Origin: a virus
DNA: 64,000 nucleotides
Direction: 5' to 3' (one strand)
Virus record (IMG/VR): IMGVR_UViG_3300020450_000017
Span: 1-64,000 of that record
Position 1 is the stretch's first letter; the number at the start of each line of letters is the position of its first letter. Below are positions 13,733 to 45,865 of this stretch, piece by piece. Position numbers and translations under genes: made by a program. The notes beneath the pieces are model-generated. The model saw only the letters and a program-made list of their open reading frames with translations. It was not told the origin of the DNA and did not search any database.

Positions 13733-15058
13733 ATGTACTACCTTATAGAAACGCAAGATCAATTAAAAAGATTTTTTAGTGATGAGGGTAGTGAATGCTA
13801 CCTACAATTTATTACTAATAATGATAATGTACACCCTAAATTACAATCGTTAAGTGCCCTTTATATCTATTCGTTTAGTAAGGAGAAAGGATTTATTATT
13901 AATTTAAACCATCCTGAGGCATTTGAGCTTGAATTACCAATAAGTTATTTAAAATCTTATACAAACATATTTGTAAAAGAAAAAATAAAAAGCTTACTAT
14001 ACATCCCTACACTTCCTTATACGGATATACAAAGTATATACTACTTACTAAAAAATGAACCACTAGAGGGATTACCTAAAACGGGCACTCACACGTTCTA
14101 TGAGCGCAAATATGGCGCGAATAACGTGAATAAAATCATTCCACTTGCAAAACACTATGAGGCGTTGGAGGAGGAATTTAATGCGATTTACCCGTATATA
14201 CTTAATTATAAGAGTGAGGAATCAAATAGGTGGTATAACGAAATATTAACTCCTACATTAGCAAAAATGGTAAGTGAGGGCTTTAAAACTAATAAGGAGT
14301 TTAAAAAACACTTTGACATAAATGAGAAATTTAGCATTAATGAAAATAAGATTTACGGATGGTATAATTTTTGCACAACAACAGGACGCCCTACAAACAA
14401 CTTTAATAGCGTTAATTTCTCAGCTTTAAAACACGATACAGGTGAGCGAGATGGCTTTGAAGCAGATAATGATTTACTAATTGAAATGGATTTTGAGGGT
14501 TACCACCCACGAATTATAGCGCGTTTATCAGGAGGTAAATTAGATAAAAGCGAATCAGTTCATATACAAATGGCAAAAATGTATTTTGATACTGAAGAGG
14601 TAGATGCTAAAATGTATAAGCAAAGTAAGGAACTAACATTCCAACAAATGTATGGTGGGATAAATCGTAAATATCTTAAATACGAATATTTTAATAAAGC
14701 ACAACAATTTATAAACACATTATGGAGTGAGTTTAACACTAAAGGTTATGTTAAAACTGTAATTGCGAGACGCAAGCTTTTAAAAAGCAATTATAAAAAC
14801 ATGACACCTCAAAAACTATTTAATTATTATATCCAAGCATTTGAAACGGAGTATAATTTTACAATGTTATCTAGATTATTTAAGTTACTTGAGGGTAAAA
14901 AAAGTAAGATAATCTTATATGTGTATGACTCTATACTAATAGATTTTGCGGTCGAAGATGGTAAAGAAACACTTCAATCAATTAGGTCAATAGTTTCGTC
15001 TGATTTTCCAATTAAAATTAAAAAAGGATATATATACTCTTCTTTGAAGGACATTTGA
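13733..15058 (+). CDS. Family A DNA polymerase-like protein
   Basis: 441 residues. The motifs of Pol I-type polymerases occur in order: TTTGRP with R219, motif A MDFEGYHPRIIARLSG with D253, motif B K299-x3-F303-x3-Y307-G308, and motif C YVYDSILIDF with D399. Both metal-binding aspartates are present, so activity is plausible. It is shorter than the Klenow fragment (about 605), and the first 180 residues show no clear exonuclease motifs. The phage also has a family B replicase, so this is a second polymerase. GAG codons are commoner than in neighbouring genes, which hints at separate origin. TTTG-TATATTTAAG lies just upstream. Confidence 0.82.
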   Translation: MYYLIETQDQLKRFFSDEGSECYLQFITNNDNVHPKLQSLSALYIYSFSKEKGFIINLNHPEAFELELPISYLKSYTNIFVKEKIKSLLYIPTLPYTDIQSIYYLLKNEPLEGLPKTGTHTFYERKYGANNVNKIIPLAKHYEALEEEFNAIYPYILNYKSEESNRWYNEILTPTLAKMVSEGFKTNKEFKKHFDINEKFSINENKIYGWYNFCTTTGRPTNNFNSVNFSALKHDTGERDGFEADNDLLIEMDFEGYHPRIIARLSGGKLDKSESVHIQMAKMYFDTEEVDAKMYKQSKELTFQQMYGGINRKYLKYEYFNKAQQFINTLWSEFNTKGYVKTVIARRKLLKSNYKNMTPQKLFNYYIQAFETEYNFTMLSRLFKLLEGKKSKIILYVYDSILIDFAVEDGKETLQSIRSIVSSDFPIKIKKGYIYSSLKDI

Positions 15059-21291: not shown

Positions 21292-22275
21292 ATGGCAAAG
21301 AAAGACTTAAAAGAAGAACGGATTGTATATAAGCCATTCGAATATCCAGAAGCTTTTGATTACTGGTTAAAACAACAACAGGCACATTGGATTCATACTG
21401 AAGTACCTATGATGAGTGATATCAATGATTGGAAGCAAAATCTAACAGAAACGGAAAAAAATATAATTGGTTCTATCTTAAAAGGCTTTGCCCAAACCGA
21501 AACAGTAGTAAACGACTATTGGACAGGATTGGTTACAAAATGGTTTAGAAAACCAGAAATCATAGCAATGGCGACCACCTTTGGGGCTATGGAAACAATA
21601 CACGCCGAAGCATATTCACTATTAAATGAAGAACTTGGACTTGACGACTTTAGCGAATTTCTCGAAGACGAGACTACAATGGCTAAGATTGAGAATCTTA
21701 TGTCAGTTAGGGATAGTTTTAATAACGAAAAAGATTGGCATGAAATTGCCAAATCGCTTGCAATATTTTCTGCTTTTACAGAAGGAGTTAACTTATTTTC
21801 TTCCTTCGCCATACTTCTCTCTTTCAAGATGCGAAATAAACTTAAGGGAGTGGGACAGATTGTTGAGTGGAGCATTAGAGACGAAAGCATGCACTCAGAT
21901 GCGGGATGCTGGTTATTTAGAACACTTATCAAGGAAAACCCTGAGCTCGACACTCCGGAGCTCAAAACGGCGATAACAGAAGCCGCATTACTTTCTTTAC
22001 AACTCGAACTTGATTTTATTGAAAAAGTTTATGAGTTAGGAGATCTTGAAGGGTGTTCTAAAGAAGATTTAATTTGCTTTATTAAACATAGAGTAAATAC
22101 AAAATTAGGTGATTTAGGGTATGATCCAGTAGTAAATGGAATTGATCCAAATGCACTTAAGAGAATGAAATGGTTTGATAGCTTATCAGCGGGTAAGCAA
22201 CACACTGATTTCTTTGCAAACAGAGTAACAAATTATTCAAAAGGAACCCATAACTGGGACGAATCAATATTTTAA
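21292..22275 (+). CDS. nrdB: Ribonucleotide reductase small subunit (class I NrdB)
   Basis: 327 residues. The di-iron ligands can be placed by family spacing: E70, E101, H104, E164, E198 and H201. A candidate radical tyrosine, Y108, lies four residues after H104 as in class Ia proteins. It stores the radical used by NrdA to reduce ribonucleotides. The order nrdB then nrdA, three bases apart, forms one operon. The start follows a purely A/T leader with no Shine-Dalgarno. Confidence 0.93.
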   Translation: MAKKDLKEERIVYKPFEYPEAFDYWLKQQQAHWIHTEVPMMSDINDWKQNLTETEKNIIGSILKGFAQTETVVNDYWTGLVTKWFRKPEIIAMATTFGAMETIHAEAYSLLNEELGLDDFSEFLEDETTMAKIENLMSVRDSFNNEKDWHEIAKSLAIFSAFTEGVNLFSSFAILLSFKMRNKLKGVGQIVEWSIRDESMHSDAGCWLFRTLIKENPELDTPELKTAITEAALLSLQLELDFIEKVYELGDLEGCSKEDLICFIKHRVNTKLGDLGYDPVVNGIDPNALKRMKWFDSLSAGKQHTDFFANRVTNYSKGTHNWDESIF

Positions 22276-22278
22276 AAA

Positions 22279-23988
22279 ATGGATGGAAATTTAGTAGCAG
22301 ACACAACCCAGTGGGTTGCAGGGAAGGACTACCCTGAATGGATGGATGAAGTTGGAGTAGCAACTATATCAAAAGGATATTTATTACCAGATGAAACACC
22401 AAAAAAAGCATATAGAAGAGTCGCACATGCAATCGCAACCCGGATTAATAGACCGGATTTGGAAAATAAGTTCTACAGATACATTTGGAACGGTTGGATT
22501 GGCCTTGCTTCTCCCGTGTTGTCTAACACTGGGACCGATAGGGGTCTTCCCATCAGCTGTTTTGGTATTGATACACCTGACAGCATTAGGGGAATTGGAT
22601 TAACTAACGCTGAACTTATGAAACTTACAGCACTTGGGGGTGGTGTAGGTATTAGTGTTTCTAGAATCAGACATAGAGGTACCCCCATATCAGGTAATGG
22701 TAAATCAGAGGGAGTTGTACCGTGGTGTAAAATTTATGATTCTGCAATTATTGCTACTAATCAAGGATCAGTTCGCAGAGGTGCTGCTTCAGTAAATTTA
22801 GATATTAATCACCTTGATATAGAAGAATTTATGCAAATTCGTAGACCTAAAGGTGACCCTAATAGACAATGTCTTAATCTCCATCAATGTGTAGTTGTAG
22901 ATGATGCCTTTATGAGGCGTTTACAAGATAGAGATGGTGAAGCAATGAAACTTTGGTTAGAAATTCTTAAAACCAGAGTAGAAACAGGTGAACCTTATAT
23001 TATGTTTAAGGATAATGTTAATAAAAATAATCCTTTAGCATACGCTATGAATAATTTAGACGTTACTATGACTAATATTTGTACTGAAATTACGCTCCAT
23101 ACAGATGAAGAACATAGTTTTATTTGTTGCTTATCATCTCTTAATCTTGCTAAATATGATGAATGGAAAGATACAGATGTAGTAGAAATAGCTACTCGTT
23201 TCTTAGATGGTGTAATGCAAGAGTTTATAGATAAAAGTAATGGTAAAGATTCACTCATAAGAACCCACAGACATGCTTTAAAGGGTAGAGCATTAGGTTT
23301 AGGGGTAATGGGTTGGCATTCTTTCTTACAACAAAAAGGATTACCATTTAATTCTATAGCTTCAACAGCTTGGACACATACGATTTTTAGCGATTTAAGA
23401 AATAAAGCAGAAGCTACTTCTAGAGAATTAGCCCAGGAATATGGTGAACCTGTATGGTGTAGAGGTACAGGTATGAGAAATACCCATTTAATTGCTATTG
23501 CTCCTACAGTATCTAATTCTCGTTTAAATAGTTGCTCTGCAGGTATTGAACCTATTCCTGCAAATATCTATACTTTTAATGGAGCTAAAGGAACATTTAT
23601 TGTTAAAAATAAAGAGTTAGAAACATTATTAGAATCTAAAGGTAAAAACACTGAAAAAGTATGGGACCAAATATTAGCTGATAATGGGTCAGTTCAAAAT
23701 TTACATCATGATATACTTACTGAATCCGAAAAGGAAGTATTCCTTACATTTAGTGAAGTAAATCAATTAGAATTAGTACGCCAAGCAGCTATAAGACAAA
23801 AATATATTGATCAAACACAATCACTTAATTTAAGTTTTGACCCTACAGATTCTCCGAAATGGATTAATCAGTGTCACTTAGAAGCTTGGAAATTAGGAGT
23901 AAAGACATTATATTACCTAAGAACCGATTCTGTAATTAAAGGGGATTTAGGTTCACGAACAGCAGAATGTATAAGTTGCGATGGATAA
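22279..23988 (+). CDS. nrdA: Ribonucleotide reductase large subunit (class I NrdA)
   Basis: 569 residues, shorter than E. coli NrdA (761); an N-terminal ATP-cone is not seen. Active-site landmarks are C94 in LPISCF, NICTEI (N266, C268, E270), the CCLSSLNL pair at 283-284, and TLYYLRTDS near the end. The C-terminus carries the CISC thiol pair that passes electrons from thioredoxin. It makes deoxynucleotides for phage DNA. The phage thioredoxin at 30336 could be its reductant. Lack of the ATP-cone suggests loss of overall dATP feedback inhibition (inference). Confidence 0.93.
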   Translation: MDGNLVADTTQWVAGKDYPEWMDEVGVATISKGYLLPDETPKKAYRRVAHAIATRINRPDLENKFYRYIWNGWIGLASPVLSNTGTDRGLPISCFGIDTPDSIRGIGLTNAELMKLTALGGGVGISVSRIRHRGTPISGNGKSEGVVPWCKIYDSAIIATNQGSVRRGAASVNLDINHLDIEEFMQIRRPKGDPNRQCLNLHQCVVVDDAFMRRLQDRDGEAMKLWLEILKTRVETGEPYIMFKDNVNKNNPLAYAMNNLDVTMTNICTEITLHTDEEHSFICCLSSLNLAKYDEWKDTDVVEIATRFLDGVMQEFIDKSNGKDSLIRTHRHALKGRALGLGVMGWHSFLQQKGLPFNSIASTAWTHTIFSDLRNKAEATSRELAQEYGEPVWCRGTGMRNTHLIAIAPTVSNSRLNSCSAGIEPIPANIYTFNGAKGTFIVKNKELETLLESKGKNTEKVWDQILADNGSVQNLHHDILTESEKEVFLTFSEVNQLELVRQAAIRQKYIDQTQSLNLSFDPTDSPKWINQCHLEAWKLGVKTLYYLRTDSVIKGDLGSRTAECISCDG

Positions 23989-24172
23989 TGATAAAGAATT
24001 AGAACAATTATTAGGCGATTTAAATAAAATTATAAGCCTTTTTAAAAAAATGGAAAACTCTTCTTTAGATGATGTGGATTCCTTAAAAAAAGCGAGTACC
24101 TTACTACAAAAAGAATTAAAAGAACGTTATGGCGAAAAAAATACCCCCGAAACCGACACACCGGAAGCGTAG
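23981..24172 (+). CDS. Small coiled-coil hypothetical protein
   Basis: 63 residues, overlapping the end of nrdA by 8 bases. It is highly charged and helical, with a weak likeness in layout to exonuclease VII small subunits (a helical hairpin with LDDVDSLKKASTLL in the middle), too weak to name it. It overlaps the next gene by 44 bases. Confidence 0.5.
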   Translation: MDNDKELEQLLGDLNKIISLFKKMENSSLDDVDSLKKASTLLQKELKERYGEKNTPETDTPEA

Positions 24173-24656
24173 TCCATTTTATTGGTGGAGACGTTTTCCT
24201 ACCCATAAGGGTCTTCACCACTATAAACCCCTTATTGAGCGTATCAAAAACGGTGATTTCGATTATCCTGAGTATTTTGAGCAAGCTGAATGGGAGGAGC
24301 AATGGTGCCGAGAAGAAATTGAGTCAAAAAGACATCTATTTAAGGATACCCAAAATTTCTTAGAAGAGTCTCGTTCTATTGAGCGTAGATATCGTAAGCG
24401 TCAAAATCTCCTTATTAAGGACGGTTATGAGACTGAACAAAAACGACTCAAAGAGCTTATTAAGCAGTTTACTATTACATTTGGTGGTTCAAAACAGGAT
24501 GTAATTGCAGTTATGGAAAAATTTGATGGTACCCTTGAAGAAATGTACTATTATTACGCCGAACTTAAGGGCATTAAAAACGTTAGTTTGCTTGAAACTA
24601 TGCCTGTAAAAAGACGTGGAAGAGGGAGGCCTCGTAAAAATCCTTTGATACAATAA
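24129..24656 (+). CDS. Basic protein with C-terminal AT-hook-like motif
   Basis: 175 residues. The N-terminus is Lys/Arg/Pro/Trp-rich (KRSPFYWWRRFP), the middle is a charged helical region, and the end reads KRRGRGRPRKNP, which contains the RGRPRK core of an AT-hook. That suggests minor-groove binding to AT-rich DNA, perhaps the phage genome itself. It precedes queD by four bases. Function not known; DNA binding is inferred. Confidence 0.6.
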   Translation: MAKKIPPKPTHRKRSPFYWWRRFPTHKGLHHYKPLIERIKNGDFDYPEYFEQAEWEEQWCREEIESKRHLFKDTQNFLEESRSIERRYRKRQNLLIKDGYETEQKRLKELIKQFTITFGGSKQDVIAVMEKFDGTLEEMYYYYAELKGIKNVSLLETMPVKRRGRGRPRKNPLIQ

Positions 24657-24660
24657 TAAT

Positions 24661-25125
24661 ATGGGAAAATTTCAATCAACAAAATTATTTGACGGATTTA
24701 GCTGTGTGTTTCGTCAATGGAAAGCAGAAAATACACACTGTAGATTTATGCATGGCTATGGAGTCAGCTTTAGAGTTTGGTTTGAGGGTAGTTTAGATGG
24801 CCGAAATTGGGTATGGGATTTCGGTGGTATGAAACGTGCTCAAACTAAAATTGATGGTATGAGTCCTAAAGCATGGATGGATTATATGTTTGATCATACT
24901 ATACTCGTTGCTAAAGACGATCCTATGATAAATCTTATTAATGATTTAGAACATAACCAAATTGCTCAGGTAAGAGTAGTCGAAGCAACCGGAGCAGAAA
25001 AATTTGCTGAATTTATATTTGGTAAATTAAATACATTTGTACAAACAGAAACTAACGGTAGAGTTAGAGTAGCTAAAGTAGAATTTATGGAACATGGGAA
25101 GAACACAGCAATCTACGAAGGTTAA
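24661..25125 (+). CDS. queD: QueD-like 6-carboxytetrahydropterin synthase
   Basis: 154 residues, PTPS/QueD family. The Cys-His segment HCRFMHGYG, the WVWDFGG block, FDHTIL with the Asp-His pair, and a late Glu in FMEHGKNT follow the family order. QueD converts the FolE product to 6-carboxytetrahydropterin in preQ0 synthesis. Odd points: where the family usually has the first zinc His (CAHR type) this protein has Phe (SCVFRQW), and the HGH motif is HGY. Zinc binding may therefore differ. It overlaps dpdA by 32 bases. Confidence 0.75.
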   Translation: MGKFQSTKLFDGFSCVFRQWKAENTHCRFMHGYGVSFRVWFEGSLDGRNWVWDFGGMKRAQTKIDGMSPKAWMDYMFDHTILVAKDDPMINLINDLEHNQIAQVRVVEATGAEKFAEFIFGKLNTFVQTETNGRVRVAKVEFMEHGKNTAIYEG

Positions 25126-25906
25126 AGTATCCCATGAGGTACCTCTACAATTATTAGAGGAAAGTAAACAATTTAATGATTATGATTATTGTTTACCCCA
25201 TCTTTTAGACCAATATAAAGTATATAAAGATTATTTCTACCAAGCTAAAAAGGAAGGTAGATATATAATTATGGATAACTCACTCCATGAATTAGGTAAA
25301 GCATATGATACATCACGTTTGTTATATTGGATTTCTGAACTAGAACCAGACGAATTTATTGTCCCTGATGTTTGGGAAAACGGCCATTACAGTGTAAGAA
25401 ATGCTAAAACATGGTCTACAATTGAAATGCCCGATAACACTACTAAAGTAGCTGTAGTGCAAGGTAAATCATATTCAGATTTTGTTAATGGCTACCAATC
25501 ATATAAGTGGTTTGGTTATCAAAAAATAGCCTTTAGTTATGGTGCCTCTTGGTTTGAAGAATGTTTTAAACACCCAAACTTATACGTAGCTAAAATGATG
25601 GGCCGTTTAAAAACTATTACTAATTTATATAAGGGGGGACTTATCAGTGATACTGATAGAGTTCATCTTTTAGGTTGCAATTTACCTCAAGAATATCTTT
25701 ATTATAAAGATTTTAAATTTATAGAGTCTATAGATACTTCAAATCCTATCATACATGGTTTAGAAGGAATTAGGTATTCAGAGGGGGGCTTATTACAGAA
25801 AAGTAAACAAAAAATCGATAAAGACTTTACTCAAAAAGTCACACCTAAACAAAAAGAAAACATTCTATATAATATAGAAATGTTTAGAAAAATAAACAAT
25901 TTATGA
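25094..25906 (+). CDS. dpdA: DpdA/TGT-like base-exchange enzyme (7-deazaguanine insertion into DNA)
   Basis: 270 residues. The tRNA-guanine transglycosylase pattern is recognisable in order: IIMDNSLHELG with D61 (cf. DSGGFQ), FIVPDVW, VAVVQGKSY, KIAFSYG, VHLLGC, and FIESIDTSNP with D214, the expected nucleophile. The zinc-binding Cys cluster of tRNA-acting TGT is absent, as in phage DpdA proteins that exchange guanine for a 7-deazaguanine in DNA. It lies among queD, queC, queE and folE in one overlapping operon. Assignment is by motif pattern; tRNA as substrate cannot be excluded. Confidence 0.68.
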   Translation: MGRTQQSTKVKVSHEVPLQLLEESKQFNDYDYCLPHLLDQYKVYKDYFYQAKKEGRYIIMDNSLHELGKAYDTSRLLYWISELEPDEFIVPDVWENGHYSVRNAKTWSTIEMPDNTTKVAVVQGKSYSDFVNGYQSYKWFGYQKIAFSYGASWFEECFKHPNLYVAKMMGRLKTITNLYKGGLISDTDRVHLLGCNLPQEYLYYKDFKFIESIDTSNPIIHGLEGIRYSEGGLLQKSKQKIDKDFTQKVTPKQKENILYNIEMFRKINNL

Positions 25907-26373
25907 ATTTAGTCTTAATTACTATTACAATATGTGCATTAGCATTTACTTATTATGTATGGAGATTCCATGACCAATTAGCTGAAAGAAAAGCAGAAGC
26001 CCAATTAGCAAAATGGAAACTTAAAGAAGAAAAAGCAATTAGAGAAGATGCTTATCAGCGCTCTAGAGCAGTTAGTTTTGGAAAAACAATAGAACATTAT
26101 GTTCCATTTATGGAAAATTTTCCAATAAATCCTAACGATATAAGATTTTTTGGCAACCCAATTGATTATATAGCTTTTACAGATATGGGATCTAAAAAGA
26201 AATGTGCCGTACATTTTTTAGAAGTTAAAAGTGGAGAAAGTCAACTAAACGGTAGGCAAAGAAATATTAAAGATGCTATTCAAAAAGGTAGAGTATATTG
26301 GCATGAATATAATGCTAAGGGTATTTGGGAACATGAGACTAAGGACGAACATTTAAATAAAGAAATAAAATGA
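25903..26373 (+). CDS. Membrane-anchored Holliday-junction-resolvase-like endonuclease
   Basis: 156 residues. An N-terminal membrane helix (residues 2-20) is followed by a charged helix and then the PF10107-type endonuclease pattern: SFGKTIEHYVPFM, FFGNPIDYIAFTD, and CAVHFLEVKSGESQLNGRQ. The D...EVK series is the PD-(D/E)XK catalytic core. Overlaps both neighbours (dpdA and queC) by four bases. Its place inside the deazaguanine operon suggests a linked role, for example cutting DNA that lacks the modification (inference). Confidence 0.72.
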   Translation: MNLVLITITICALAFTYYVWRFHDQLAERKAEAQLAKWKLKEEKAIREDAYQRSRAVSFGKTIEHYVPFMENFPINPNDIRFFGNPIDYIAFTDMGSKKKCAVHFLEVKSGESQLNGRQRNIKDAIQKGRVYWHEYNAKGIWEHETKDEHLNKEIK

Positions 26374-27176
26374 AAAAACAAGCAGTATTGTCACTAAGTG
26401 GAGGTATGGACAGCTCCACAGTGTTGCTTCATCTACTCGCCAATGGCTATGAAGTGACAGCACTGTCTTTCGATTATGGGCAGAAACACAGAGTAGAACT
26501 CGAACGAGCCCAACAATTAGTCAATTATATTAACTTAAACAGGCTTACAGAACCTAATGTTAAATATGGAGTAATTAAACTTGATGGTTTAGCTCCTATG
26601 CTTAATAGTGCTCTTGTAGAAGGTGGAGATGAAGTACCTGAAGGACACTATGAACAAGAAAACATGAAAGAAACTGTTGTTCCTAACCGTAATAAAATAT
26701 TTTCATCATTAATCCAGGCTGTTGCCCTATCTATCGCAAATGAAAAACAAACAGAAGTCCATATCGCAATGGGTATTCACGCAGGTGATCACGCTATTTA
26801 CCCTGACTGTAGACAAGAATTCAGGGATGCTGACTATAAGGCTTTCACCGAAGGTAACTGGGACGCTGATCGCGTTAGCTATATTACCCCTTATCTTAAT
26901 GGGGATAAATACGATATTTTGGTTGATGGGGCCGAGTGCTGCGAGCGATTGGGGTTACAATTTGACGACGTTTATGCACTCACAAATACTTCTTATAAGC
27001 CCATTAATATTAATGGGACTTGGTACAGTGATTATAAATCAGCTTCATCGGTGGAAAGGGTTGAAGCCTTTCTTAAGATGGGAAAACCTGATCCAGTCGC
27101 ATACGCTGATGAATCAGGACCTGTCAATTGGAATGTTGTACAAAAGCATGTTGAACAAGTATTAAATAATGCGTAA
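26370..27176 (+). CDS. queC: QueC-like 7-cyano-7-deazaguanine synthase
   Basis: 268 residues. The ATP-pyrophosphatase loop LSGGMDSSTVLL (about 9-20) and SFDYGQKHRVEL are diagnostic, with VVPNRNKIF and MGIHAGDHAIYPDCR further on. QueC turns 7-carboxy-7-deazaguanine into preQ0. The C-terminal DPVAYADE is kept, but the four cysteines that usually bind zinc near this point are absent: the region reads TNTSYKP and SDYKSASSVER. It overlaps queE by 8 bases. Confidence 0.88.
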   Translation: MKKQAVLSLSGGMDSSTVLLHLLANGYEVTALSFDYGQKHRVELERAQQLVNYINLNRLTEPNVKYGVIKLDGLAPMLNSALVEGGDEVPEGHYEQENMKETVVPNRNKIFSSLIQAVALSIANEKQTEVHIAMGIHAGDHAIYPDCRQEFRDADYKAFTEGNWDADRVSYITPYLNGDKYDILVDGAECCERLGLQFDDVYALTNTSYKPININGTWYSDYKSASSVERVEAFLKMGKPDPVAYADESGPVNWNVVQKHVEQVLNNA

Positions 27177-27942
27177 AAGAATAGAAGATTATAATAAGGT
27201 ACTACCAATAGTAGAAATATATCGTTGTGTGCAAAGTGAGGGATCTCGTTTTGGGCGCCCTACTATTGCCGTTAGAACAACAGGTTGTACTCACCGCTGT
27301 TGGTTTGGTGAAGGGGGTTGGTGTGATAGTTGGTATACAAGTATTCACCCAGATAAAGGTACTTTTACTTTTAATGATATAATCGCTATTTATGACGAGA
27401 ACCCTCAAGTAAAGGAAATGATGCTTACGGGGGGTTCGCCTTCAATGCATTTTGCCTTAGTAAATGAAATTACACACTTTGCCAAAGAAAGAGGAATCCT
27501 CGTTACAATTGAAACCGAGGGATCCCATTTTCTCGAGACTGATTATCCGATTAATCTCATTTCTCTTAGCCCTAAGTTTTCTAATTCTGTGCCTAGGGTG
27601 GGTATTACTACTCCCGGTGGTAAAATTGTTGATGAAAGGTTTGTCAAAATTCATAATAGGCATAGATTACATTATGAAAACATTAGGAAAACTTTAGATT
27701 ATCATGAAGATTACCATTTTAAACCCGTTTGGGATGGTACAGATGAAAATTTAAAAGAAATAGAGGAATTTAGAGTTAAAATGGAAATTCCTAAGAATAA
27801 AACATTTGTAATGCCCGCAGGTGATACTCGTGAAACATTAGTTGAAATGTATCCTAAAGTATTTGAAATGGTAGCAGAACATGGTTATAATATGACGGGA
27901 AGAGATCATATTATAGCATACAACACAGAAAGGGGGGTTTAA
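27169..27942 (+). CDS. queE: QueE-like 7-carboxy-7-deazaguanine synthase (radical SAM)
   Basis: 257 residues. N-terminal LPIVEIYRCVQSEGSRFGRP and VRTTGCTHRC match QueE. The cluster cysteines appear as C40, C44 and C52 (CX3CX7C), an insertion relative to the usual CX3CX2C of radical SAM enzymes. The GGSP segment (MMLTGGSPS) and IETEGSH follow. It would convert 6-carboxytetrahydropterin to 7-carboxy-7-deazaguanine with S-adenosylmethionine and a 4Fe-4S cluster. TAATG coupling to the next small ORF. Confidence 0.87.
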   Translation: MRKRIEDYNKVLPIVEIYRCVQSEGSRFGRPTIAVRTTGCTHRCWFGEGGWCDSWYTSIHPDKGTFTFNDIIAIYDENPQVKEMMLTGGSPSMHFALVNEITHFAKERGILVTIETEGSHFLETDYPINLISLSPKFSNSVPRVGITTPGGKIVDERFVKIHNRHRLHYENIRKTLDYHEDYHFKPVWDGTDENLKEIEEFRVKMEIPKNKTFVMPAGDTRETLVEMYPKVFEMVAEHGYNMTGRDHIIAYNTERGV

Positions 27943-28085
27943 TGAAGGAACAAGCACTTGAGATTTTAGAAGAAATAAGAGATAATGTTACTATATGCTG
28001 TGCTGTAACTATGGAACCTGATGAGGTAGAAGAATTAATAGATAAGTTAAAAAAAGTTATAGAAGAAGAATGGAACAAGCAATAA
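27942..28085 (+). CDS. Small acidic hypothetical protein
   Basis: 47 residues beginning MKEQALEILEEIRDN, TAATG-coupled to queE and overlapping the next gene by 16 bases. It is helical and acidic with a CC pair at 19-20. Coding is supported by exact fit between its neighbours; function unknown. Confidence 0.55.
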   Translation: MKEQALEILEEIRDNVTICCAVTMEPDEVEELIDKLKKVIEEEWNKQ

Positions 28086-28582
28086 GTGAAAAAGATTTAG
28101 ATATTAAAATTAAAATCTTAGCTAAACAAATAAATGATGAACATAGAGGTGATCCTACTCCTATTGTAATGGTGTGTATATTAAATGGGGGATTTATGTT
28201 TTTTAGTGATTTAGTAAAAGAAATAGAGATTCCTGTTGAAATAGATTTTATTCGTTGTAAATCTTATTTTGGTAGAAAACAAGGTGATTTAGTTGTGTCA
28301 AAAGATCTAGAAACTAAAATTAAAGGTAAACATGTTTATTTAGTAGATGATATTTTAGATTCTGGAAATACTATGGTAGCTGTTAAAAAATTTCTATCTG
28401 TTAAAGAACCTAAATCAATAACTCCAGTAGTAGCAATTTATAAAGAAAGTGTGGATTTTGATAGGGTTCTTCATATATTATATCAAGATGTAGATTCTAT
28501 ATTTGATCCTTGGTATATAGGATATGGTATGGATGATGATAAGGGACATAATAGAAATTTAAAAACAATTTATACTATATAA
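28070..28582 (+). CDS. Purine phosphoribosyltransferase (hypoxanthine-guanine type)
   Basis: 170 residues, the usual length for Hpt. The PRPP-binding loop reads VYLVDDILDSGNTM, and CILNGGFMFFSDLV plus IDFIRCKSYFG are typical of the family; FDPWYIGYGMD near the end fits the purine-binding hood. It joins PRPP to hypoxanthine or guanine. Its place between queE and folE raises the question whether it salvages guanine released by base exchange, or acts on a deazapurine (inference). TAATG overlap with folE. Confidence 0.82.
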   Translation: MEQAISEKDLDIKIKILAKQINDEHRGDPTPIVMVCILNGGFMFFSDLVKEIEIPVEIDFIRCKSYFGRKQGDLVVSKDLETKIKGKHVYLVDDILDSGNTMVAVKKFLSVKEPKSITPVVAIYKESVDFDRVLHILYQDVDSIFDPWYIGYGMDDDKGHNRNLKTIYTI

Positions 28583-29277
28583 TGGAGAATAAGAGAAGAA
28601 AAGTACACGAAGAATTAGAAGTAGTACAAACAGGTTTTGCAAACGGTGTTGCTGAAGGTTTTCCACTCCAACAATCAGAAAAAGATAAGATGATTGATGA
28701 AGCCGAAGTAGCATATGGTAAATTTTTAGATGCTTTAAAATGTGATTGGAGAAACGATCCCAACTCAATGGAAACTCCAAGACGTGTTGCTAAAGCTTAT
28801 GTAAATGATTTATGGGCGGGACGTTATACAGCTATGTCGCCTATAACTTCTTTTCCAAGTGATGGTTATGATGGAGTTATTATAGAAAGAAACATACCCC
28901 TTACATCTATGTGTTCCCACCACCACCAAACAATTGGGGGTGTAGTCCATATTGGGTATATTGCGGGGACAGAAGGGCAAGTAATTGGTTTATCTAAATT
29001 AAATCGTATTGTAGAATTATTTGGCCGTAGGGGGGCAATTCAAGAACAACTAACCTCTGCAATTCATAATGCTGTAGATAAGATTACTGAAGGTAATAAA
29101 GGTGTTATTGTTACAATTGTAGGTACTCACAATTGTGTTAGTTGTAGAGGTGTTAAACACCAAGGTGCAGCAATGGTTACTACCAAAGCATCAGGCGCAT
29201 TTAGAGATGATACAAATCAAGCACGTAAAGAGTTCTTCGACAGCTTGAAAATTAATAATGGAGGACACAATATTTAA
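28582..29277 (+). CDS. folE: GTP cyclohydrolase I
   Basis: 231 residues (E. coli FolE: 222). Zinc and active-site residues are present: C111 and H114 in MCSHHHQT, and C185 in THNCVSCRG; TPRRVAKAY and IPLTSMCSHHH are family signatures. It converts GTP to dihydroneopterin triphosphate, the first step towards both folate and preQ0. Position at the end of the queD-dpdA-queC-queE operon argues for the deazaguanine route. Confidence 0.93.
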   Translation: MENKRRKVHEELEVVQTGFANGVAEGFPLQQSEKDKMIDEAEVAYGKFLDALKCDWRNDPNSMETPRRVAKAYVNDLWAGRYTAMSPITSFPSDGYDGVIIERNIPLTSMCSHHHQTIGGVVHIGYIAGTEGQVIGLSKLNRIVELFGRRGAIQEQLTSAIHNAVDKITEGNKGVIVTIVGTHNCVSCRGVKHQGAAMVTTKASGAFRDDTNQARKEFFDSLKINNGGHNI

Positions 29278-29282
29278 AAGTT

Positions 29283-29432
29283 ATGTTAGAGTTTTTATAC
29301 CACGCACTCGGAATTTGTGGTGAGCACGATCACCCACACTTAATTAACCTTGGCTTTTTAGCAGCTGGGGTATACGCAATCATTAAAATATCAAATAATT
29401 ATGGCATATTGGCTAGCAAAAGTAAAGGTTGA
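29283..29432 (+). CDS. Small hydrophobic hypothetical protein
   Basis: 49 residues starting MLEFLYHALGICGEHDH. A hydrophobic stretch (about 21-35) follows a His-rich turn. Similar short proteins with an LG-CGEH pattern occur in marine phages. It fills the gap after folE and overlaps the next gene by 32 bases. Function unknown. Confidence 0.55.
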   Translation: MLEFLYHALGICGEHDHPHLINLGFLAAGVYAIIKISNNYGILASKSKG

Positions 29433-29601
29433 AGAGGAAACCTCCCGTGGCGCTATGAGATGGACCACTGAACAATTCCTTGTTAATGCAGAAAATGCAA
29501 CAGACGCAGAAGTTAAATTAACTGAAGAATATTCATCATACCCACATGATTGGCATGTTGATCAGTTAAAGCAAATTAAACTAGTAAAAGTTATTGAGTG
29601 A
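29401..29601 (+). CDS. DUF4494-like small protein
   Basis: 66 residues. The layout (WLAKVKVEEET, TEQFLVNAENATDAEVKLTEE) resembles DUF4494, a small domain common in Bacteroidota and their phages. If correct it supports the host guess. Overlaps the next gene through TGATG. Confidence 0.55.
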   Translation: MAYWLAKVKVEEETSRGAMRWTTEQFLVNAENATDAEVKLTEEYSSYPHDWHVDQLKQIKLVKVIE

Positions 29602-30092
29602 TGAATAAAGTACCATTTGTAGATGAAGTGGAGGAATTTAATTTGTTAATGAATAAACCTAACAATTATGAGCCCACAATACCAGAAAAAAAGGAATGGG
29701 AGTTTGTATACAACTTCGTCCTGGAAGAACTTGAGGAATATAGAGAAGCATGTGAACGAGGTGACATCGTTGAGATTTTGGACGCTTTGTGCGACATTGC
29801 TTATGTCTCATTGGGGAATGGAACTATGTTACATGGCCTTAAGGATAAAATTTGGCCCGCTTATCAAGAAGTACAAGCCTCTAACCTATCTAAGGCTTGC
29901 AAAACTGAAGATGAAGCACGAGAAACGGTTAAAAAGAGATCCGAAGAACAAGGTGAGCCCTGCCACTATGAAATGGTCGGTGATAAGTATATTGTATACC
30001 GTACGCGTGACAGAAAAGTTATGAAAAATATTAATTATTTTAGACCAGACTTAAAACAGTTTTTTAATGAAAATGAATTAAAAAATGTCTGA
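29601..30092 (+). CDS. MazG-like nucleotide pyrophosphohydrolase
   Basis: 163 residues from the ATG at 29601, which overlaps the previous stop as TGATG (a GTG three bases earlier is less likely). VLEELEEYREACERGDIVEI followed by DALCDIAYV carries the EExxE...ExxD metal site of all-alpha NTP pyrophosphatases. These clear (d)NTPs or lower alarmone levels; phage versions are common. The C-terminal 60 residues are extra and include a DRKVMKN basic patch. Confidence 0.75.
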   Translation: MNKVPFVDEVEEFNLLMNKPNNYEPTIPEKKEWEFVYNFVLEELEEYREACERGDIVEILDALCDIAYVSLGNGTMLHGLKDKIWPAYQEVQASNLSKACKTEDEARETVKKRSEEQGEPCHYEMVGDKYIVYRTRDRKVMKNINYFRPDLKQFFNENELKNV

Positions 30093-30339: not shown

Positions 30340-30587
30340 AAAAGTTTTTATATTTTAGTGCCCCCTGGTGTGGGCCTTGTGAACAATTAAGTCCTGTTAT
30401 GGATGAACTTCATGCAGAAGGAATGACAGTCCAAAAAATTGATGTAGATTCTAACCCTGAAATTGTCCAATCATTTAATATTAGAAACGTTCCTACTGTA
30501 ATTTTACAAGTAGATAACGTAGAAAAGGGAAGGAAAATTGGCCTTGCGTCAAAATCTATGTATATTGACCTATATAATCAAGGTTAA
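30336..30587 (+). CDS. Thioredoxin/glutaredoxin-like protein
   Basis: 83 residues, shorter than E. coli thioredoxin (109). The active site is WCGPC in YFSAPWCGPCEQL, and the cis-proline loop is NVPTVI. It reduces disulfides; here the probable client is the phage ribonucleotide reductase. TAATG-type coupling to the DNA polymerase gene follows. Confidence 0.88.
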   Translation: MKKFLYFSAPWCGPCEQLSPVMDELHAEGMTVQKIDVDSNPEIVQSFNIRNVPTVILQVDNVEKGRKIGLASKSMYIDLYNQG

Positions 30588-32302
30588 TGTATAAAAATTG
30601 TTATGTTCAAAGAGGTGAAGAATGGAATCATTATAGAATCCATTTATGGACTGATGAGGGATACTCTATAGAAGATTACCAAAATTATGGTTATTTAGAA
30701 TGTACAGATAGTGCTGCTACTCATATTGGCCTTAAAGGAGAAAATCTTAAGAGGGTATTTAATTGGGAAAGAAATGACCCTCGTATGCACTATTCTGATC
30801 ATACTAGGGGAAATATTCACACTAAATTTCTTATAGACAAATATGGTGATGATGATACTCCCTCGGTAACTCATAGAGAAGTATTTTTTGATATTGAGAT
30901 TGAGATAGGAGGTGCTCTTACCCCTGAATATATCAAAAAAGCCCCTAAACCAGTTACTTCAATTGCCCTTTGGGATAAACAATTAGATGATTGGAAAATC
31001 ATTATCCTAGATAAGGATAATAATATTGAACATACAGTTGATAAACAGGGGAGAGAAGTAATCCCTGTTAAGAGAGAATCTGATTTACTAGAAAAATTTC
31101 TTAACACATTAGAAGAGATAGAACCAGATATCCTTATAGGATATAATAGTGATTATTTCGACATTCCTTATCTTTACTATAGAATTAAAAATACATTAGG
31201 AGATAGATATGCTAATAGAATGTCTCCTATTAAAATAGTAGAAGAACAAACATGGAATGAAGATGTACCTATCAGAATAGCCGGAGTTACTTCTCTTGAT
31301 TATATGCGCTTACATAAAAAGTATAGTTTTAAAGATGAACCATCTTTTAAATTAGATGCTTTAGGTGAAAAATATGTTGGTCAAAAGAAGATTGAATATG
31401 AAGGTTCACTTGATAGGTTATTTGCAGAGGATAAAGAAAAATTTATTGAATATAACTTTGTTGATGTTTTAATACTTAAAAAACTAGACGAAAAATTTCA
31501 ATATATTGATCTAACTAAAAACCTTGCCCATAAAGGAAAAGTGTTATATGAAGAAGTGTATTTATCTTCTAAAATTCAGGATGGTGCTATTTCAAGTTGG
31601 TTATTATCTGAAAATATTATTCCACCTAATAAGGACTTAGACCCACTTACTAAGAAAAATTATGCAGGTGGTTATTTATTTTGCCCTAAAACAGGTATTT
31701 ACAATTATATGTTTGATGAAGACCTTACATCACTATACCCTTCTATTATCATGTCTTTAAATATAGGCAAGGAAACTTATGTAGGTAGAGTATTAGATTT
31801 ATTTGATGATAGGAATAATAGATTAGGTTTAAACGACTTAGAAAAAATGGTCAACGAAGACCCCGAAAAAGAGATGCCTGTTGAAAATCTTCAACGTAAA
31901 CAAAATTATATGAAGGTTAAAGATGTTATAGATACTATCAAAAAGAATAATCTATCTGTAACAGCTAATGGTGTTATGTTTAGAACAGATAAACCATCTA
32001 CTCTAAATGTTATTCTGGATAAATGGTTTGATGAAAGGGTAATGTATAAGAAAGCTATGAAAAAAGCTTATAAAAATGGTAATAAAAAAGAAGGTGAATT
32101 AAATCATCTTAAGCAATATACTATGAAAATTTTGCTTAACTCACTTTATGGTGCTACCGCTTTACCATCATTTAGGTATGGTAGTGTTATTTTATCTGAA
32201 GGCATCACACTTACAGGACAACGTATCATTCAAGAATCGGCTTTATTTGCAAATACACATATGAATAAGGTATTACGAGGAGAATTAAAATTAGAATTAT
32301 GA
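30587..32302 (+). CDS. Family B DNA polymerase, N-terminal piece (gp43A)
   Basis: 571 residues. It carries the 3'-5' exonuclease motifs (FFDIEIEI with D102 and E104; IGYNSDYFDIPYL; YNFVDVLILKKLD) and palm motif A, DLTSLYPS with catalytic D379, then motif B near KILLNSLYGA. The protein stops just before motif C, which is on the next gene. T4 gp43 is a single 898-residue chain; the two pieces here total 877. The pieces must assemble to be active. The ATGA overlap would give balanced synthesis. Confidence 0.92.
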   Translation: MYKNCYVQRGEEWNHYRIHLWTDEGYSIEDYQNYGYLECTDSAATHIGLKGENLKRVFNWERNDPRMHYSDHTRGNIHTKFLIDKYGDDDTPSVTHREVFFDIEIEIGGALTPEYIKKAPKPVTSIALWDKQLDDWKIIILDKDNNIEHTVDKQGREVIPVKRESDLLEKFLNTLEEIEPDILIGYNSDYFDIPYLYYRIKNTLGDRYANRMSPIKIVEEQTWNEDVPIRIAGVTSLDYMRLHKKYSFKDEPSFKLDALGEKYVGQKKIEYEGSLDRLFAEDKEKFIEYNFVDVLILKKLDEKFQYIDLTKNLAHKGKVLYEEVYLSSKIQDGAISSWLLSENIIPPNKDLDPLTKKNYAGGYLFCPKTGIYNYMFDEDLTSLYPSIIMSLNIGKETYVGRVLDLFDDRNNRLGLNDLEKMVNEDPEKEMPVENLQRKQNYMKVKDVIDTIKKNNLSVTANGVMFRTDKPSTLNVILDKWFDERVMYKKAMKKAYKNGNKKEGELNHLKQYTMKILLNSLYGATALPSFRYGSVILSEGITLTGQRIIQESALFANTHMNKVLRGELKLEL

Positions 32303-33219
32303 AAGAAGAAATACCATGGTGGATCTGTAATGAGGAAGATAAAAACTTCTGCACATATGTGGATACAGATTCTAATTATTTTCATGCTGAACCACTTTTG
32401 AAGCACTTATATCCTAATTTTTCAGAATTACCTGCTGAAGAACAGGACGATTTACTTGAAAAAATGGCTTTAAAATACCAAGATTTAATTACAGAATATT
32501 ATGATACTTTAGCTAGGGAAGCATTTAATATAGATAAACACCGTTTAGAAATGAAAACGGAGTGCACTATTCGTTCTGGTTTTTTCTCAGGTAAAAGAAG
32601 ATATGCACAATATATTACTAAAAAAGAAGGTATTAAAGTAGAAGATATAGATGTTAAAGGTCTTGATTTTATGAAATCAAATTTCCCTCCCCTATTTAAA
32701 AAATTCTTTAATGGTATTTTAGATAAAATCCTATTTGGTGCTACTAGAAATGAAATCGATCAGGAAATTTTAGAGTTTAAAAATAGTTTAGATACATTAC
32801 CTCTAGAGTTACTAGGTAAGCCAACAGGAGTAAAGGATATTAAAAAGTATATTGAACGTCCCCCGGGTGCTGGAAATATATTTACTACCCTTAAAACCGG
32901 GGCCCCTGTAAATGTTAAAGCAGCAGTTAGATATAACGATTTCCTTAAATTTAAGGGTTTAGATAAAAAACACTCTCAAATAGTTGCTGGTGATAAAATC
33001 AAATGGGTTTATTTAAAAGATAATCCTTATAAAATTGATACTATGGGTTTCTTAGATTTTGATTTTCCAGAAGAAATTCGTACATTTGTAGAGCAATATA
33101 TTGATAGAGATAAAGCATTTGATTCTATACTTAAAAATAAGCTAGAATCATTTTATAAAGACTTAAGTTGGGGTAGTTTAACCCTTAATACACATGTAAA
33201 CAATTTTTTCTCATTCTAA
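32299..33219 (+). CDS. Family B DNA polymerase, C-terminal piece (gp43B)
   Basis: 306 residues. Motif C, TYVDTDSNY with D22 and D24, opens this piece; the rest is palm and thumb, with ECTIRSGFFSGKRRYAQYI corresponding to the KKRY region after motif C. The last residues (NNFFSF) resemble the clamp-binding tail of T4 polymerases. It has no independent polymerase activity by itself, since catalytic D379 is on the other chain. TAATG coupling to the clamp gene. Confidence 0.92.
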   Translation: MKEEIPWWICNEEDKNFCTYVDTDSNYFHAEPLLKHLYPNFSELPAEEQDDLLEKMALKYQDLITEYYDTLAREAFNIDKHRLEMKTECTIRSGFFSGKRRYAQYITKKEGIKVEDIDVKGLDFMKSNFPPLFKKFFNGILDKILFGATRNEIDQEILEFKNSLDTLPLELLGKPTGVKDIKKYIERPPGAGNIFTTLKTGAPVNVKAAVRYNDFLKFKGLDKKHSQIVAGDKIKWVYLKDNPYKIDTMGFLDFDFPEEIRTFVEQYIDRDKAFDSILKNKLESFYKDLSWGSLTLNTHVNNFFSF

Positions 33220-33950: not shown

Positions 33951-34247
33951 ATGGAAAATATCCCAATTACACCGTTGGCTGATCGTGTGTTGATCCAACC
34001 GATTGAAGCTGAAGAATCAACCTACGGGAACATTGTTGTTCCTGATATGGGTAAGGATCGTCCTGACTTTGGAAATGTACTTGCAGTTGGTCCTGGCCGT
34101 TATGACAATAATGGTAATTTGGTCCCTATGCGGGTTGAAGTAGGACAAAAAGTTATTATGCCTAAGTACGGGGCAAATACCGTAGAAATTGAAGGTGAGG
34201 AATATGTTCTTGCCTCGGAATCAGAAATTTTAGGATTTATAAATTAA
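33951..34247 (+). CDS. groES: Co-chaperonin GroES
   Basis: 98 residues, full length. PLADRVLIQPIEAEES opens the protein, a mobile loop follows (STYGNIVVPDMGKDRP), and KVIMPKYGANTVEIEGEEY closes it. It caps the GroEL ring. This is a true GroES sequence, unlike T4 gp31, which is a highly diverged functional substitute. Six bases separate it from groEL. Confidence 0.95.
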   Translation: MENIPITPLADRVLIQPIEAEESTYGNIVVPDMGKDRPDFGNVLAVGPGRYDNNGNLVPMRVEVGQKVIMPKYGANTVEIEGEEYVLASESEILGFIN

Positions 34248-34250
34248 TAA

Positions 34251-35866
<1,616 letters not shown>

Positions 35867-35867
<1 letters not shown>

Positions 35868-42782: not shown

Positions 42783-43230
42783 CTTAACAGAATGCCCTTG
42801 TTGTGGGTCTAATGCTTGTTCTAAAACTACTGCTCATGACGGCAATGAAATTTATTTATGCTGGACATGTGGTATGTCTACTACTAGTGAGTTAATTGAT
42901 GGAAGTGATTTTGAAAAAAATAATTTTTCTCAAACCGCTGAACTTATAAAAGACCTAAAACAAGTCCATAATAGTTTAGCCTGGTATCCCAAAGTTATTA
43001 ACTTACCTGAAAATGGAATGGTATTTCCGGAATGGAATAAAAGGATGAAAGATTGGTATTGGGCATCTGTGAAAGCAGTTCCCATAACTGAAGAAGAAAA
43101 GGATAAATACCCAAATCCTAATAACCCCGGAGAATACTATAATTTTAAAATGGACATCAAAAACATAAAAAGATTTAACAAAGTATGTTTTATGGATGCC
43201 GCCGAATATATTGGAATGTTTGAATCATGA
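42775..43230 (+). CDS. Zinc-ribbon hypothetical protein
   Basis: 151 residues. Two Cys pairs, CPCC and CWTC (about 8-37), make a zinc ribbon at the N-terminus. The remainder (KVINLPENGMVFPEWNKRMK and following) is an unnamed domain seen in marine phage proteins. Function unknown; in the operon with glycosyltransferases by ATGA overlap. Confidence 0.6.
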   Translation: MDNLTECPCCGSNACSKTTAHDGNEIYLCWTCGMSTTSELIDGSDFEKNNFSQTAELIKDLKQVHNSLAWYPKVINLPENGMVFPEWNKRMKDWYWASVKAVPITEEEKDKYPNPNNPGEYYNFKMDIKNIKRFNKVCFMDAAEYIGMFES

Positions 43231-43853: not shown

Positions 43854-43880
43854 TACATTTGGATTTGTAAATGTATTTTT
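43852..43880 (+). terminator. Terminator hairpin
   Basis: Stem AATACATTT / AAATGTATT with an 8-base loop (GGATTTGT) and a following T run, starting at the stop of the GT2 gene. Confidence 0.68.
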
Positions 43881-43890
43881 GTATATTCAC
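43881..43890 (+). promoter_or_regulatory. Candidate promoter motif GTATATTCAC
   Basis: GTATATTCAC follows the terminator and lies 20 bases before the SIS-HAD gene. The same 10-mer recurs at 63667-63676, also right after a terminator and just before a gene. Confidence 0.4.
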
Positions 43891-43910
43891 TAAATAAAAT
43901 AAAATAATTA

Positions 43911-45862: not shown

Positions 45863-45865
45863 AAA

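What the first reader, a model, noticed from the sequence alone, without database searches (positions are those of the whole stretch)
24661..29277. Compact operon for 7-deazaguanine synthesis and insertion into phage DNA
QueD, a DpdA/TGT-like enzyme, QueC, QueE and FolE lie in one run of overlapping genes. FolE, QueD, QueE and QueC make preQ0 from GTP. DpdA-type enzymes in phages swap guanine for deazaguanines in DNA, which blocks host restriction. No QueF is seen in the window, so dPreQ0 is the predicted modification unless later genes change it. A nuclease and a purine phosphoribosyltransferase are built into the same operon, which is an unusual gene content.
Basis: partly seen in the sequence, partly recalled or inferred. 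Interest (0 to 1): 0.85.

Follow-up and report, generated by a model that had tools for sequence, protein, structure and literature searches.

The report
Guanine-replacement gene set in phage
This marine virus of bacteria carries a gene set that very probably makes a 7-deazaguanine base and swaps it for guanine in its DNA; comparing hundreds of relatives shows that a guanine-salvage enzyme and a nucleotide-trimming enzyme belong to the same set, and leaves open whether the swap happens in finished DNA or in its building blocks.

Summary
QueD, a DpdA-like enzyme, a PF10107 nuclease, QueC, QueE, a purine phosphoribosyltransferase and FolE lie in one run at 24661-29277, which continues to a MazG/PRA-PH-type NTP pyrophosphohydrolase (29598-30092). 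The 25094 protein has no Pfam match over cut-off and no PDB relative by sequence, but its AlphaFold model (pLDDT 94) matches tRNA-guanine transglycosylase as best PDB hit. It is related (36-40% identity) to proteins of Flavobacterium phage immuto (annotated DpdA) and Campylobacter phages CP220/CPt10, whose dG is reported 100% replaced by dADG. It thus belongs to the short, full-replacement DpdA group ('DpdA3', name recalled), not the 9g or nt-1 groups.

New here: (1) the phosphoribosyltransferase is a core part (58/61 loci) and its slot beside FolE is held by two different families, Hpt and Gpt, exchanged at least 4-5 times; their relevant shared substrate is guanine, the expected leaving group, so it probably recycles guanine to GTP for FolE. 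(2) The NTPPase is equally conserved (56/61). (3) Other lineages place dNMP kinases of three families beside DpdA3, raising a mononucleotide-level exchange (unproven). (4) QueC lost its zinc cysteines. The exact base cannot be told.

The parts
21292..22275 (+). ribonucleotide reductase small subunit (upstream neighbour, often linked in relatives)
   Evidence: PF00268 6.8e-66; linked in relatives
22279..23988 (+). ribonucleotide reductase large subunit
   Evidence: PF02867 8.7e-104
24129..24656 (+). conserved protein of unknown function with AT-hook-like C-terminus (RRGRGRPRK), usually just upstream of queD/dpdA
   Evidence: no Pfam/PHROG hit; homologues in 64 loci
24661..25125 (+). QueD (6-carboxytetrahydropterin synthase family); C-x3-HGY motif instead of HGH
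25094..25906 (+). DpdA3-type guanine transglycosylase, TGT-fold barrel without the zinc subdomain; D61, D92, Q123, D214 invariant
   Evidence: AlphaFold pLDDT 94.1; Foldseek TGT E 1.7e-8, prob 1.00; homologues in CP220 and immuto; invariant columns
25903..26373 (+). PF10107 Holliday-junction-resolvase-related nuclease with N-terminal hydrophobic helix (accessory)
   Evidence: 33 loci
26370..27176 (+). QueC with canonical SGGxDS, YxQxHxxE, VPxRN, YPDC motifs but all four zinc cysteines replaced (S, D, S, S)
27169..27942 (+). QueE radical-SAM enzyme with C-x3-C-x7-C cluster motif
28070..28582 (+). Hpt-type (hypoxanthine-)guanine phosphoribosyltransferase, proposed guanine salvage
   Evidence: PRPP motif conserved in 118 homologues
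28582..29277 (+). FolE, GTP cyclohydrolase I, zinc/catalytic motifs intact
29401..29601 (+). DUF4494 protein (frequent member)
   Evidence: 50 loci
29598..30092 (+). MazG/PRA-PH-type NTP pyrophosphohydrolase with EExxE-x11-ExxD metal site
   Evidence: 56/61 loci
30587..33219 (+). family-B-type DNA polymerase in two overlapping ORFs (30587-32302, 32299-33219), downstream neighbour of the module
   Evidence: reading frames and homologous ORFs in relatives; family judged from the sequence, not scanned with Pfam

Best explanation
The block is a guanine-replacement module of a Far-T4-like phage. FolE, QueD, QueE and QueC turn GTP into preQ0 or its amide ADG (pathway inferred from families). The DpdA3-type enzyme, a TGT-fold transglycosylase reduced to its catalytic barrel, exchanges that base for guanine in phage DNA through an aspartate nucleophile (D214, assigned by motif), probably at most or all guanines as in its relatives CP220/CPt10, which shields the DNA from host nucleases. 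Each exchange releases one guanine; the phosphoribosyltransferase next to folE returns it to GMP, which host kinases turn into the GTP that FolE consumes, and this also pulls the reversible exchange forward. The NTPPase trims a nucleotide pool, most simply dGTP to dGMP, but its substrate is unknown. Shown here: gene content, fold, conservation, linkage. Inferred: chemistry, extent of replacement, salvage loop, biological benefit.
For: TGT is the top PDB fold match (E 1.7e-8, prob 1.00), and TGT motifs are in register: VVQGK with IIQGS and HLLGxxxPQE with YLMGVGKPED by profile alignment, plus D61, D92 and D214 by motif order, all invariant in 73 sequences. Homologues lie near que or folE genes in CP220, CC_R7, immuto, Youna2, D479 and BSTP8. 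CP220/CPt10 DNA has 100% of dG replaced by dADG (PMC8306585 citing Crippen 2019). Of 61 IMG/VR loci with at least 7.5 kb on both sides of dpdA3, PRT is in 58, NTPPase in 56 and FolE in 54; 9 loci with DpdA1 or DpdA2 have neither PRT nor NTPPase. PRT lies just before FolE in 101 of 112 loci, from two different families (Hpt 55, Gpt 63) exchanged 4-5 times on the DpdA3 tree. Conversely, 25 of 27 PRT-anchored loci carry que or folE genes and 32 of 32 NTPPase-anchored loci carry the PRT, and contigs lacking DpdA3 are all under 66 kb. HGPRT-like genes occur in only 18 of 50,697 phage records.
Against: No activity was measured. QueC lacks the zinc cysteines and QueE has an unusual cluster spacing, so the end product may not be preQ0. 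The CP220, BSTP8, Youna2, D479 and CC_R7 records have neither the PRT nor this NTPPase, so those parts are not needed for a DpdA3 system as such. dNMP kinases beside DpdA3 in other lineages fit a nucleotide-level reaction better. Most of the loci compared are related marine phages, so counts are not independent events. The HGPRT scores below NCBIfam's equivalog cut-off (121.7 against 150).
Confidence: 0.55

Rival explanations
1. Nucleotide-level replacement: the NTPPase turns dGTP into dGMP, DpdA3 exchanges guanine for preQ0/ADG on dGMP (or dGDP/dGTP), a dNMP kinase (phage or host) phosphorylates the product, and the phage polymerase incorporates it, as in T4 cytosine replacement and Z-genome phages. 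The phosphoribosyltransferase again salvages guanine.
For: dNMP/thymidylate-type kinases of three different PHROG families lie at or near DpdA3 in other lineages: phrog_2107 (CP220, CC_R7, immuto, L099), phrog_139 (D479), phrog_761 (BSTP8, Youna2); 48 of 61 loci have one; no such kinase or P-loop ORF lies near DpdA1/DpdA2 in the loci checked. A nucleotide hydrolase recurs from different families: PRA-PH (window, immuto), another PRA-PH (L206), MazG (L207), HD domain directly upstream of DpdA3 in CP220 (its only one), DCD/dUTPase-like in D479. The block often adjoins the phage polymerase. Replacement is 100% in CP220. A precedent for base exchange on a dNMP is DmtZ. The NTPPase has all five MazZ metal ligands at identical spacing.
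Against: DpdA/TGT enzymes characterised so far act on polynucleotides (PMC6884629); Cui et al. 2023 (recalled, not held) infer post-replicative insertion for all DpdA groups. The window's own lineage has no recognisable dNMP kinase. The NTPPase's nearest solved fold is DR2231, a MazG-like enzyme solved with dUTP/dUMP analogues, and the MazZ guanine-contact residues I56 and D60 fall on C65 and Y69. T4-like and other phages carry dNMP kinases for other reasons.
Confidence: 0.33
2. Ribonucleotide route: the phosphoribosyltransferase joins preQ0 to PRPP, kinases and the adjacent ribonucleotide reductase make the modified dNTP, and the DpdA-like protein does something else.
For: RNR subunits lie just upstream in the window and in 9 of 16 QueF-negative full loci.
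Against: RNR is near only 3-6 of 45 QueF-positive loci. The catalytic residues of the TGT-like enzyme are invariant. HPRT chemistry normally uses N7 of the purine, which 7-deazaguanines lack (established knowledge). Two PRT families that share guanine as substrate alternate in the slot. CP220-type phages do without a PRT.
Confidence: 0.05
3. Queuosine/tRNA-modifying auxiliary metabolism, as earlier metagenome papers on Far-T4 and Bacteroidetes phages proposed, with no DNA modification.
For: Same genes were so annotated (PMC4360716, PMC7198788).
Against: The transglycosylase lacks the C-terminal zinc subdomain of tRNA TGT (no Cys after D214; sequence); the TGT Pfam model finds nothing in the record; its relatives lie in phages with fully substituted DNA.
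Confidence: 0.07

Closest known systems
Campylobacter phage CP220/CPt10 system (gp056; 'DpdA3' of Cui et al. 2023, name recalled from memory)
   Same: 36-37% identical short transglycosylase homologue over 96-99% of its length; QueD in the same region; dNMP kinase and HD phosphohydrolase adjacent; 100% dG to dADG reported
   Different: CP220 has no phosphoribosyltransferase and no PRA-PH NTPPase; the window phage has no recognised dNMP kinase
Flavobacterium phage immuto (annotated DpdA, QueF, formyltransferase)
   Same: 40% identical DpdA; same PRT-FolE-DUF4494-NTPPase order; NTPPase 82% identical
   Different: immuto adds QueF, a formyltransferase and a dNMP kinase, uses a Gpt-type instead of Hpt-type PRT and a PolA instead of a family-B-type polymerase; its predicted product differs
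Far-T4 phage contigs, clade 1 (Roux et al. 2015)
   Same: queuosine genes with PRT, GTP cyclohydrolase, DNA polymerase and heat-shock gene reported on the same contigs
   Different: transglycosylase not mentioned in the passages read; interpreted as queuosine metabolism
Enterobacteria phage 9g DpdA1 and Vibrio phage nt-1 DpdA2 systems
   Same: preQ0 genes plus a TGT-fold transglycosylase
   Different: not found by sequence search with the window protein, nt-1 DpdA2 matched only by fold (1.3e-4); no PRT, NTPPase or adjacent kinase
Z-genome (2-aminoadenine) phage gene sets with MazZ, DatZ, PurZ, DmtZ
   Same: same logic of complete base replacement with pool-trimming hydrolases; DmtZ exchanges a base on a dNMP
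   Different: unrelated key enzymes; here the base is made by the preQ0 pathway; pool-level action not shown

Membership tests
TGT/DpdA transglycosylase superfamily | TGT-type barrel fold | tested here: met
   AlphaFold pLDDT 94, top PDB hits all TGT, E 1.7e-8, TMq about 0.6
TGT/DpdA transglycosylase superfamily | catalytic Asp pair and base-recognition Asp/Gln (Zm D102, D280, D156, Q203) | tested here: met
   D61, D214, D92, Q123 invariant in 73 sequences; register of the Q and LLG-PxE motifs confirmed by hhalign; the Asp assignments rest on motif order
tRNA-guanine transglycosylase (true TGT) | C-terminal zinc-binding CxCxxC...H subdomain | tested here: not met
   270 aa, no Cys after D214; PF01702 does not match
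DpdA3-type (CP220 group) | sequence homology to CP220/immuto proteins along the whole length | tested here: met
   36-40% identity over 96-99%. That CP220 gp056 is the published DpdA3 is recalled, not checked (paper not held)
DpdA3-type (CP220 group) | complete replacement of dG in virion DNA | not testable with these tools
   needs nucleoside mass spectrometry
DpdA1 (9g) or DpdA2 (nt-1) | detectable sequence homology | tested here: not met
   neither among 26 tblastn hits; nt-1 DpdA2 only by fold
QueC (preQ0 synthase) | SGGxDS, YxQxHxxE, VPxRN, YPDC motifs | tested here: met
   present in 101-103 of 103 relatives; the window sequence has all four (motif list from PMC13329287)
QueC (preQ0 synthase) | zinc motif C-x8-CxxCxxC | tested here: not met
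   replaced by S, D, S, S in 97-100 of about 104 aligned sequences including the window
QueE | radical-SAM C-x3-C-x2-C cluster motif | tested here: not met
   C-x3-C-x7-C in 122 of 133; C-x3-C-x2-C in the 9g-type and other control phages; family match otherwise clear
QueD | zinc His motif C-x3-HGH | tested here: not met
   HGY in 130 of 138, but also in some DpdA1 phages
FolE | C-x-HH and H-x-C..RG zinc/catalytic motifs | tested here: met
   115 of 118 including the window
Hpt-type HGPRT | family match and PRPP-binding DDIxDxG | tested here: met
   PDB Hpt enzymes 2e-25; motif conserved; NCBIfam equivalog cut-off not reached, so substrate unproven
MazZ-like dGTP pyrophosphohydrolase | five metal-ligand acids EExxE-x11-ExxD | tested here: met
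   E43, E44, E47, E59, D62 against MazZ E34, E35, E38, E50, D53
MazZ-like dGTP pyrophosphohydrolase | guanine-contact residues I56 and D60 of MazZ-1 | tested here: not met
   fall on C65 and Y69 when counted from the ExxD motif; best fold hit is DR2231, not MazZ. Substrate untested

The most novel reading that the evidence does not exclude
DpdA3 is not a DNA-modifying enzyme but a mononucleotide base-exchange enzyme: it makes 7-deazaguanine deoxynucleotides from dGMP before replication, with an NTPPase or HD hydrolase feeding dGMP, a dNMP kinase and the phage polymerase downstream, and a guanine phosphoribosyltransferase recycling the leaving base. That would be a guanine counterpart of the T4 and Z-genome replacement pathways built on a TGT fold.
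Probability: 0.3. Interest if true: 0.88.

Novelty: new variant of a known kind. Interest (0 to 1): 0.62.

Why it matters
It assigns a role to the unexplained phosphoribosyltransferase in these clusters (recycling the released guanine) and gives direct tests of how complete replacement is reached, including whether a TGT-fold enzyme can work on free nucleotides. A QueC without its zinc site, conserved across about 100 loci, gives a natural test of what the zinc does.

Tried and rejected
Profile search of PDB sequences with the DpdA3 alignment: no TGT hit, only noise, so sequence alone cannot place it. Net charge/pI as a sign of DNA binding: DpdA3 mean pI 5.7, but DpdA1 and DpdA2 are equally acidic, not informative. 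Size and loss of the zinc domain as a sign of a small substrate: DpdA1 (317 aa) also lacks it, so dropped. A dNMP kinase in the window lineage: not found by HMMs, P-loop scan or PHROG searches (the weak hits are P-loops of other proteins). Fusions of DpdA3 with nucleotide enzymes: none. MazG search in CP220, CC_R7, Youna2, D479, BSTP8: none. NTPPase as a MazZ orthologue: rejected on guanine-contact residues and fold ranking. NTPPase as plain dUTPase remains possible: no dUTPase (PF00692) in the window record or immuto, but one in G001. A query with the Youna2 protein in viral contigs found nothing. The 2023 paper that named DpdA3 is not in the library.
Full report
What is there. The window is bases 1-64000 of a 72,964-base virus record with no end repeats (G+C 33%). 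From 24661 to 29277 on the + strand lie QueD, a 270-aa protein, a PF10107 nuclease, QueC, QueE, a phosphoribosyltransferase and FolE, mostly overlapping by 1-32 bases. The block goes on with DUF4494 (29401) and a PRA-PH/MazG-type NTP pyrophosphohydrolase (29598-30092), thioredoxin and a family-B-type DNA polymerase; ribonucleotide reductase lies just upstream. Replication genes (gp32-like, RecA-like, clamp loader) are T4-like. The gene content fits the 'Far-T4' phages, whose clade-1 contigs carry queuosine genes, a PRT, GTP cyclohydrolase, DNA polymerase and a heat-shock gene (PMC4360716) and for which Bacteroidetes hosts were proposed (PMC7198788). Several relatives sit in marine Flavobacteriales bins. 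Host and lineage are inference.

The transglycosylase. Pfam TGT does not match anywhere in the record, and a profile of 73 relatives finds no TGT in PDB sequences. tblastn finds 26 phage records: Flavobacterium phage immuto (40%, annotated DNA guanine transglycosylase), Campylobacter CP220/CPt10 (36-37%), and distant ones in Vibrio, Bacillus and Weizmannia phages. AlphaFold gives a confident model (pLDDT 94.1, pTM 0.90) and Foldseek returns tRNA-guanine transglycosylases as the best PDB hits (E 1.7e-8, probability 1.00, TMq about 0.6); among viral models it finds a Cellulophaga phage phiST protein and, weakly, nt-1 DpdA2. Motifs are in TGT order: MDNS (D61), VPD (D92), VVQGK (Q123), HLLGxxxPQE, SIDTSNP (D214), with those residues invariant in 73 sequences; hhalign against E. 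coli TGT aligns the third and fourth motifs. The zinc subdomain is missing.

Which DpdA. CP220 and CPt10 DNA has 100% of dG replaced by dADG, whereas small amounts of dADG were measured in several DpdA1/DpdA2 phages (PMC8306585; PMC6884629). From memory, Cui et al. 2023 named this full-replacement group DpdA3; that paper is not held. By homology the window enzyme belongs to it, so near-complete replacement is the natural prediction, untested.

The module in relatives. I fetched about 187 loci by DpdA3 similarity (plus annotated phages) and searched their ORFs with profile HMMs grown from the window and reference genes. In 61 loci with at least 7.5 kb on both sides of dpdA3: PRT 58, NTPPase 56, FolE 54, QueE 57, QueD 54, dNMP kinase 48. 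Nine loci with DpdA1 or DpdA2 have FolE, QueC, QueD or QueE but no PRT, NTPPase or kinase hit and no P-loop ORF of kinase size near dpdA in the loci checked. Conversely, 25 of 27 PRT-anchored loci have que or folE genes and all 32 NTPPase-anchored loci have a PRT; of 17 records tested, the 7 without DpdA3 are fragments below 66 kb. The loci are related, so these counts show conservation of a module across rearranged gene orders, not independent events.

The phosphoribosyltransferase. It is directly before folE in 101 of 112 loci. Two families that do not cluster together at E 1e-12 fill this place: Hpt-type (55 loci, the window among them; nearest PDB entries are Hpt enzymes) and Gpt-type (63 loci; nearest PDB entries are Gpt/XGPRT enzymes). 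On the DpdA3 tree the type changes at least 4-5 times (quick tree with some long branches). The substrate shared by both that matters here is guanine, which is the leaving group of a TGT-type exchange. Such genes are rare in phage records (18 of 50,697, several looking like host contamination). I therefore read the gene as guanine recycling into GMP and GTP for FolE. HPRTs normally rely on N7, absent in 7-deazaguanines, which argues against preQ0 as its substrate (established knowledge).

The NTPPase and the question of level. The NTPPase is 82% identical between the window phage and immuto, although their DpdA proteins share only 40%. Its metal site EExxE-x11-ExxD has the same spacing as MazZ, but the MazZ guanine contacts are not conserved and the best fold match is the MazG-like DR2231; its substrate is open. 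In other lineages DpdA3 stands beside kinases of three PHROG families annotated as thymidylate or dNMP kinases and beside other nucleotide hydrolases: an HD domain in CP220, the only one in that genome, MazG in L207 and another PRA-PH in L206, a DCD/dUTPase-like gene in D479. This is the logic of phages that replace a base before replication: Z-phages use MazZ, DatZ and PurZ (PMC8342488), and DmtZ there exchanges a base on dAMP (PMC12884076). So a mononucleotide reaction of DpdA3 is a serious rival (about one in three). Against it: DpdA enzymes studied so far act on DNA, and the window lineage has no recognisable dNMP kinase. I keep the DNA-level reaction as somewhat more likely.

The modified base. 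QueF and GATase_6 are absent from the record, so dPreQ0 is possible, but so is dADG as in CP220. QueC of this clade keeps the catalytic motifs listed in a 2026 family survey (PMC13329287) but has lost all four zinc cysteines, and QueE has C-x3-C-x7-C instead of C-x3-C-x2-C. Both changes are conserved in about 100 loci, so they are not decay; their effect is unknown. Immuto-type relatives add QueF and a formyltransferase, which suggests a formylated preQ1 there (inference).

Verdict.

Noticed in passing
window 26370-27176 and about 100 related loci: QueC has Ser/Asp/Ser/Ser in place of the four zinc cysteines while keeping the catalytic motifs; conserved across the clade.
   Followed up: partly
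window 27169-27942 and relatives: QueE cluster motif C-x3-C-x7-C (GCTHRCWFGEGGWCDS) instead of C-x3-C-x2-C.
   Followed up: partly
window 30587-33219: Family-B-type DNA polymerase split into two ORFs overlapping by 4 bases; the N-terminal piece is 559-612 aa in many relatives and a full 860-890 aa chain in others.
   Followed up: partly
window 13733-15058: A second, short DNA polymerase A-like ORF (441 aa, PF00476) in the same genome.
   Followed up: no
window 39994-51895: Sugar/surface-polysaccharide cluster: glycosyltransferases, a GT29-like sialyltransferase, a CMP-sugar-type cytidylyltransferase, a uridine-kinase/aldolase fusion, nucleotidyltransferase, HpcH aldolase.
   Followed up: no
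window 33951-35867: Phage-encoded GroES and GroEL pair just after the polymerase; immuto has the same pair after its PolA.
   Followed up: no
window 24129-24656: Conserved protein of unknown function with an AT-hook-like tail, near queD/dpdA in more than 60 loci.
   Followed up: no
window 29598-30092 and L002 11279-11803: NTPPase is 82% identical between two phage lineages whose DpdA proteins are 40% identical, suggesting gene exchange or very strong constraint.
   Followed up: partly
L169 10331-11287, L170 6123-7079: dNMP kinase domain in a longer ORF with an extra C-terminal domain that looks acetyltransferase-like by eye.
   Followed up: no
L196-L204 (genome contigs): These phage-like contigs are binned into MAGs named Pelagibacter, Woesearchaeota, Legionellales, Spirochaetia; likely binning errors, so the organism names are weak host evidence.
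   Followed up: no
phage collection hits H29, H32-H44: Several 'phage' records with an hpt gene look like bacterial contamination of the collection.
   Followed up: no
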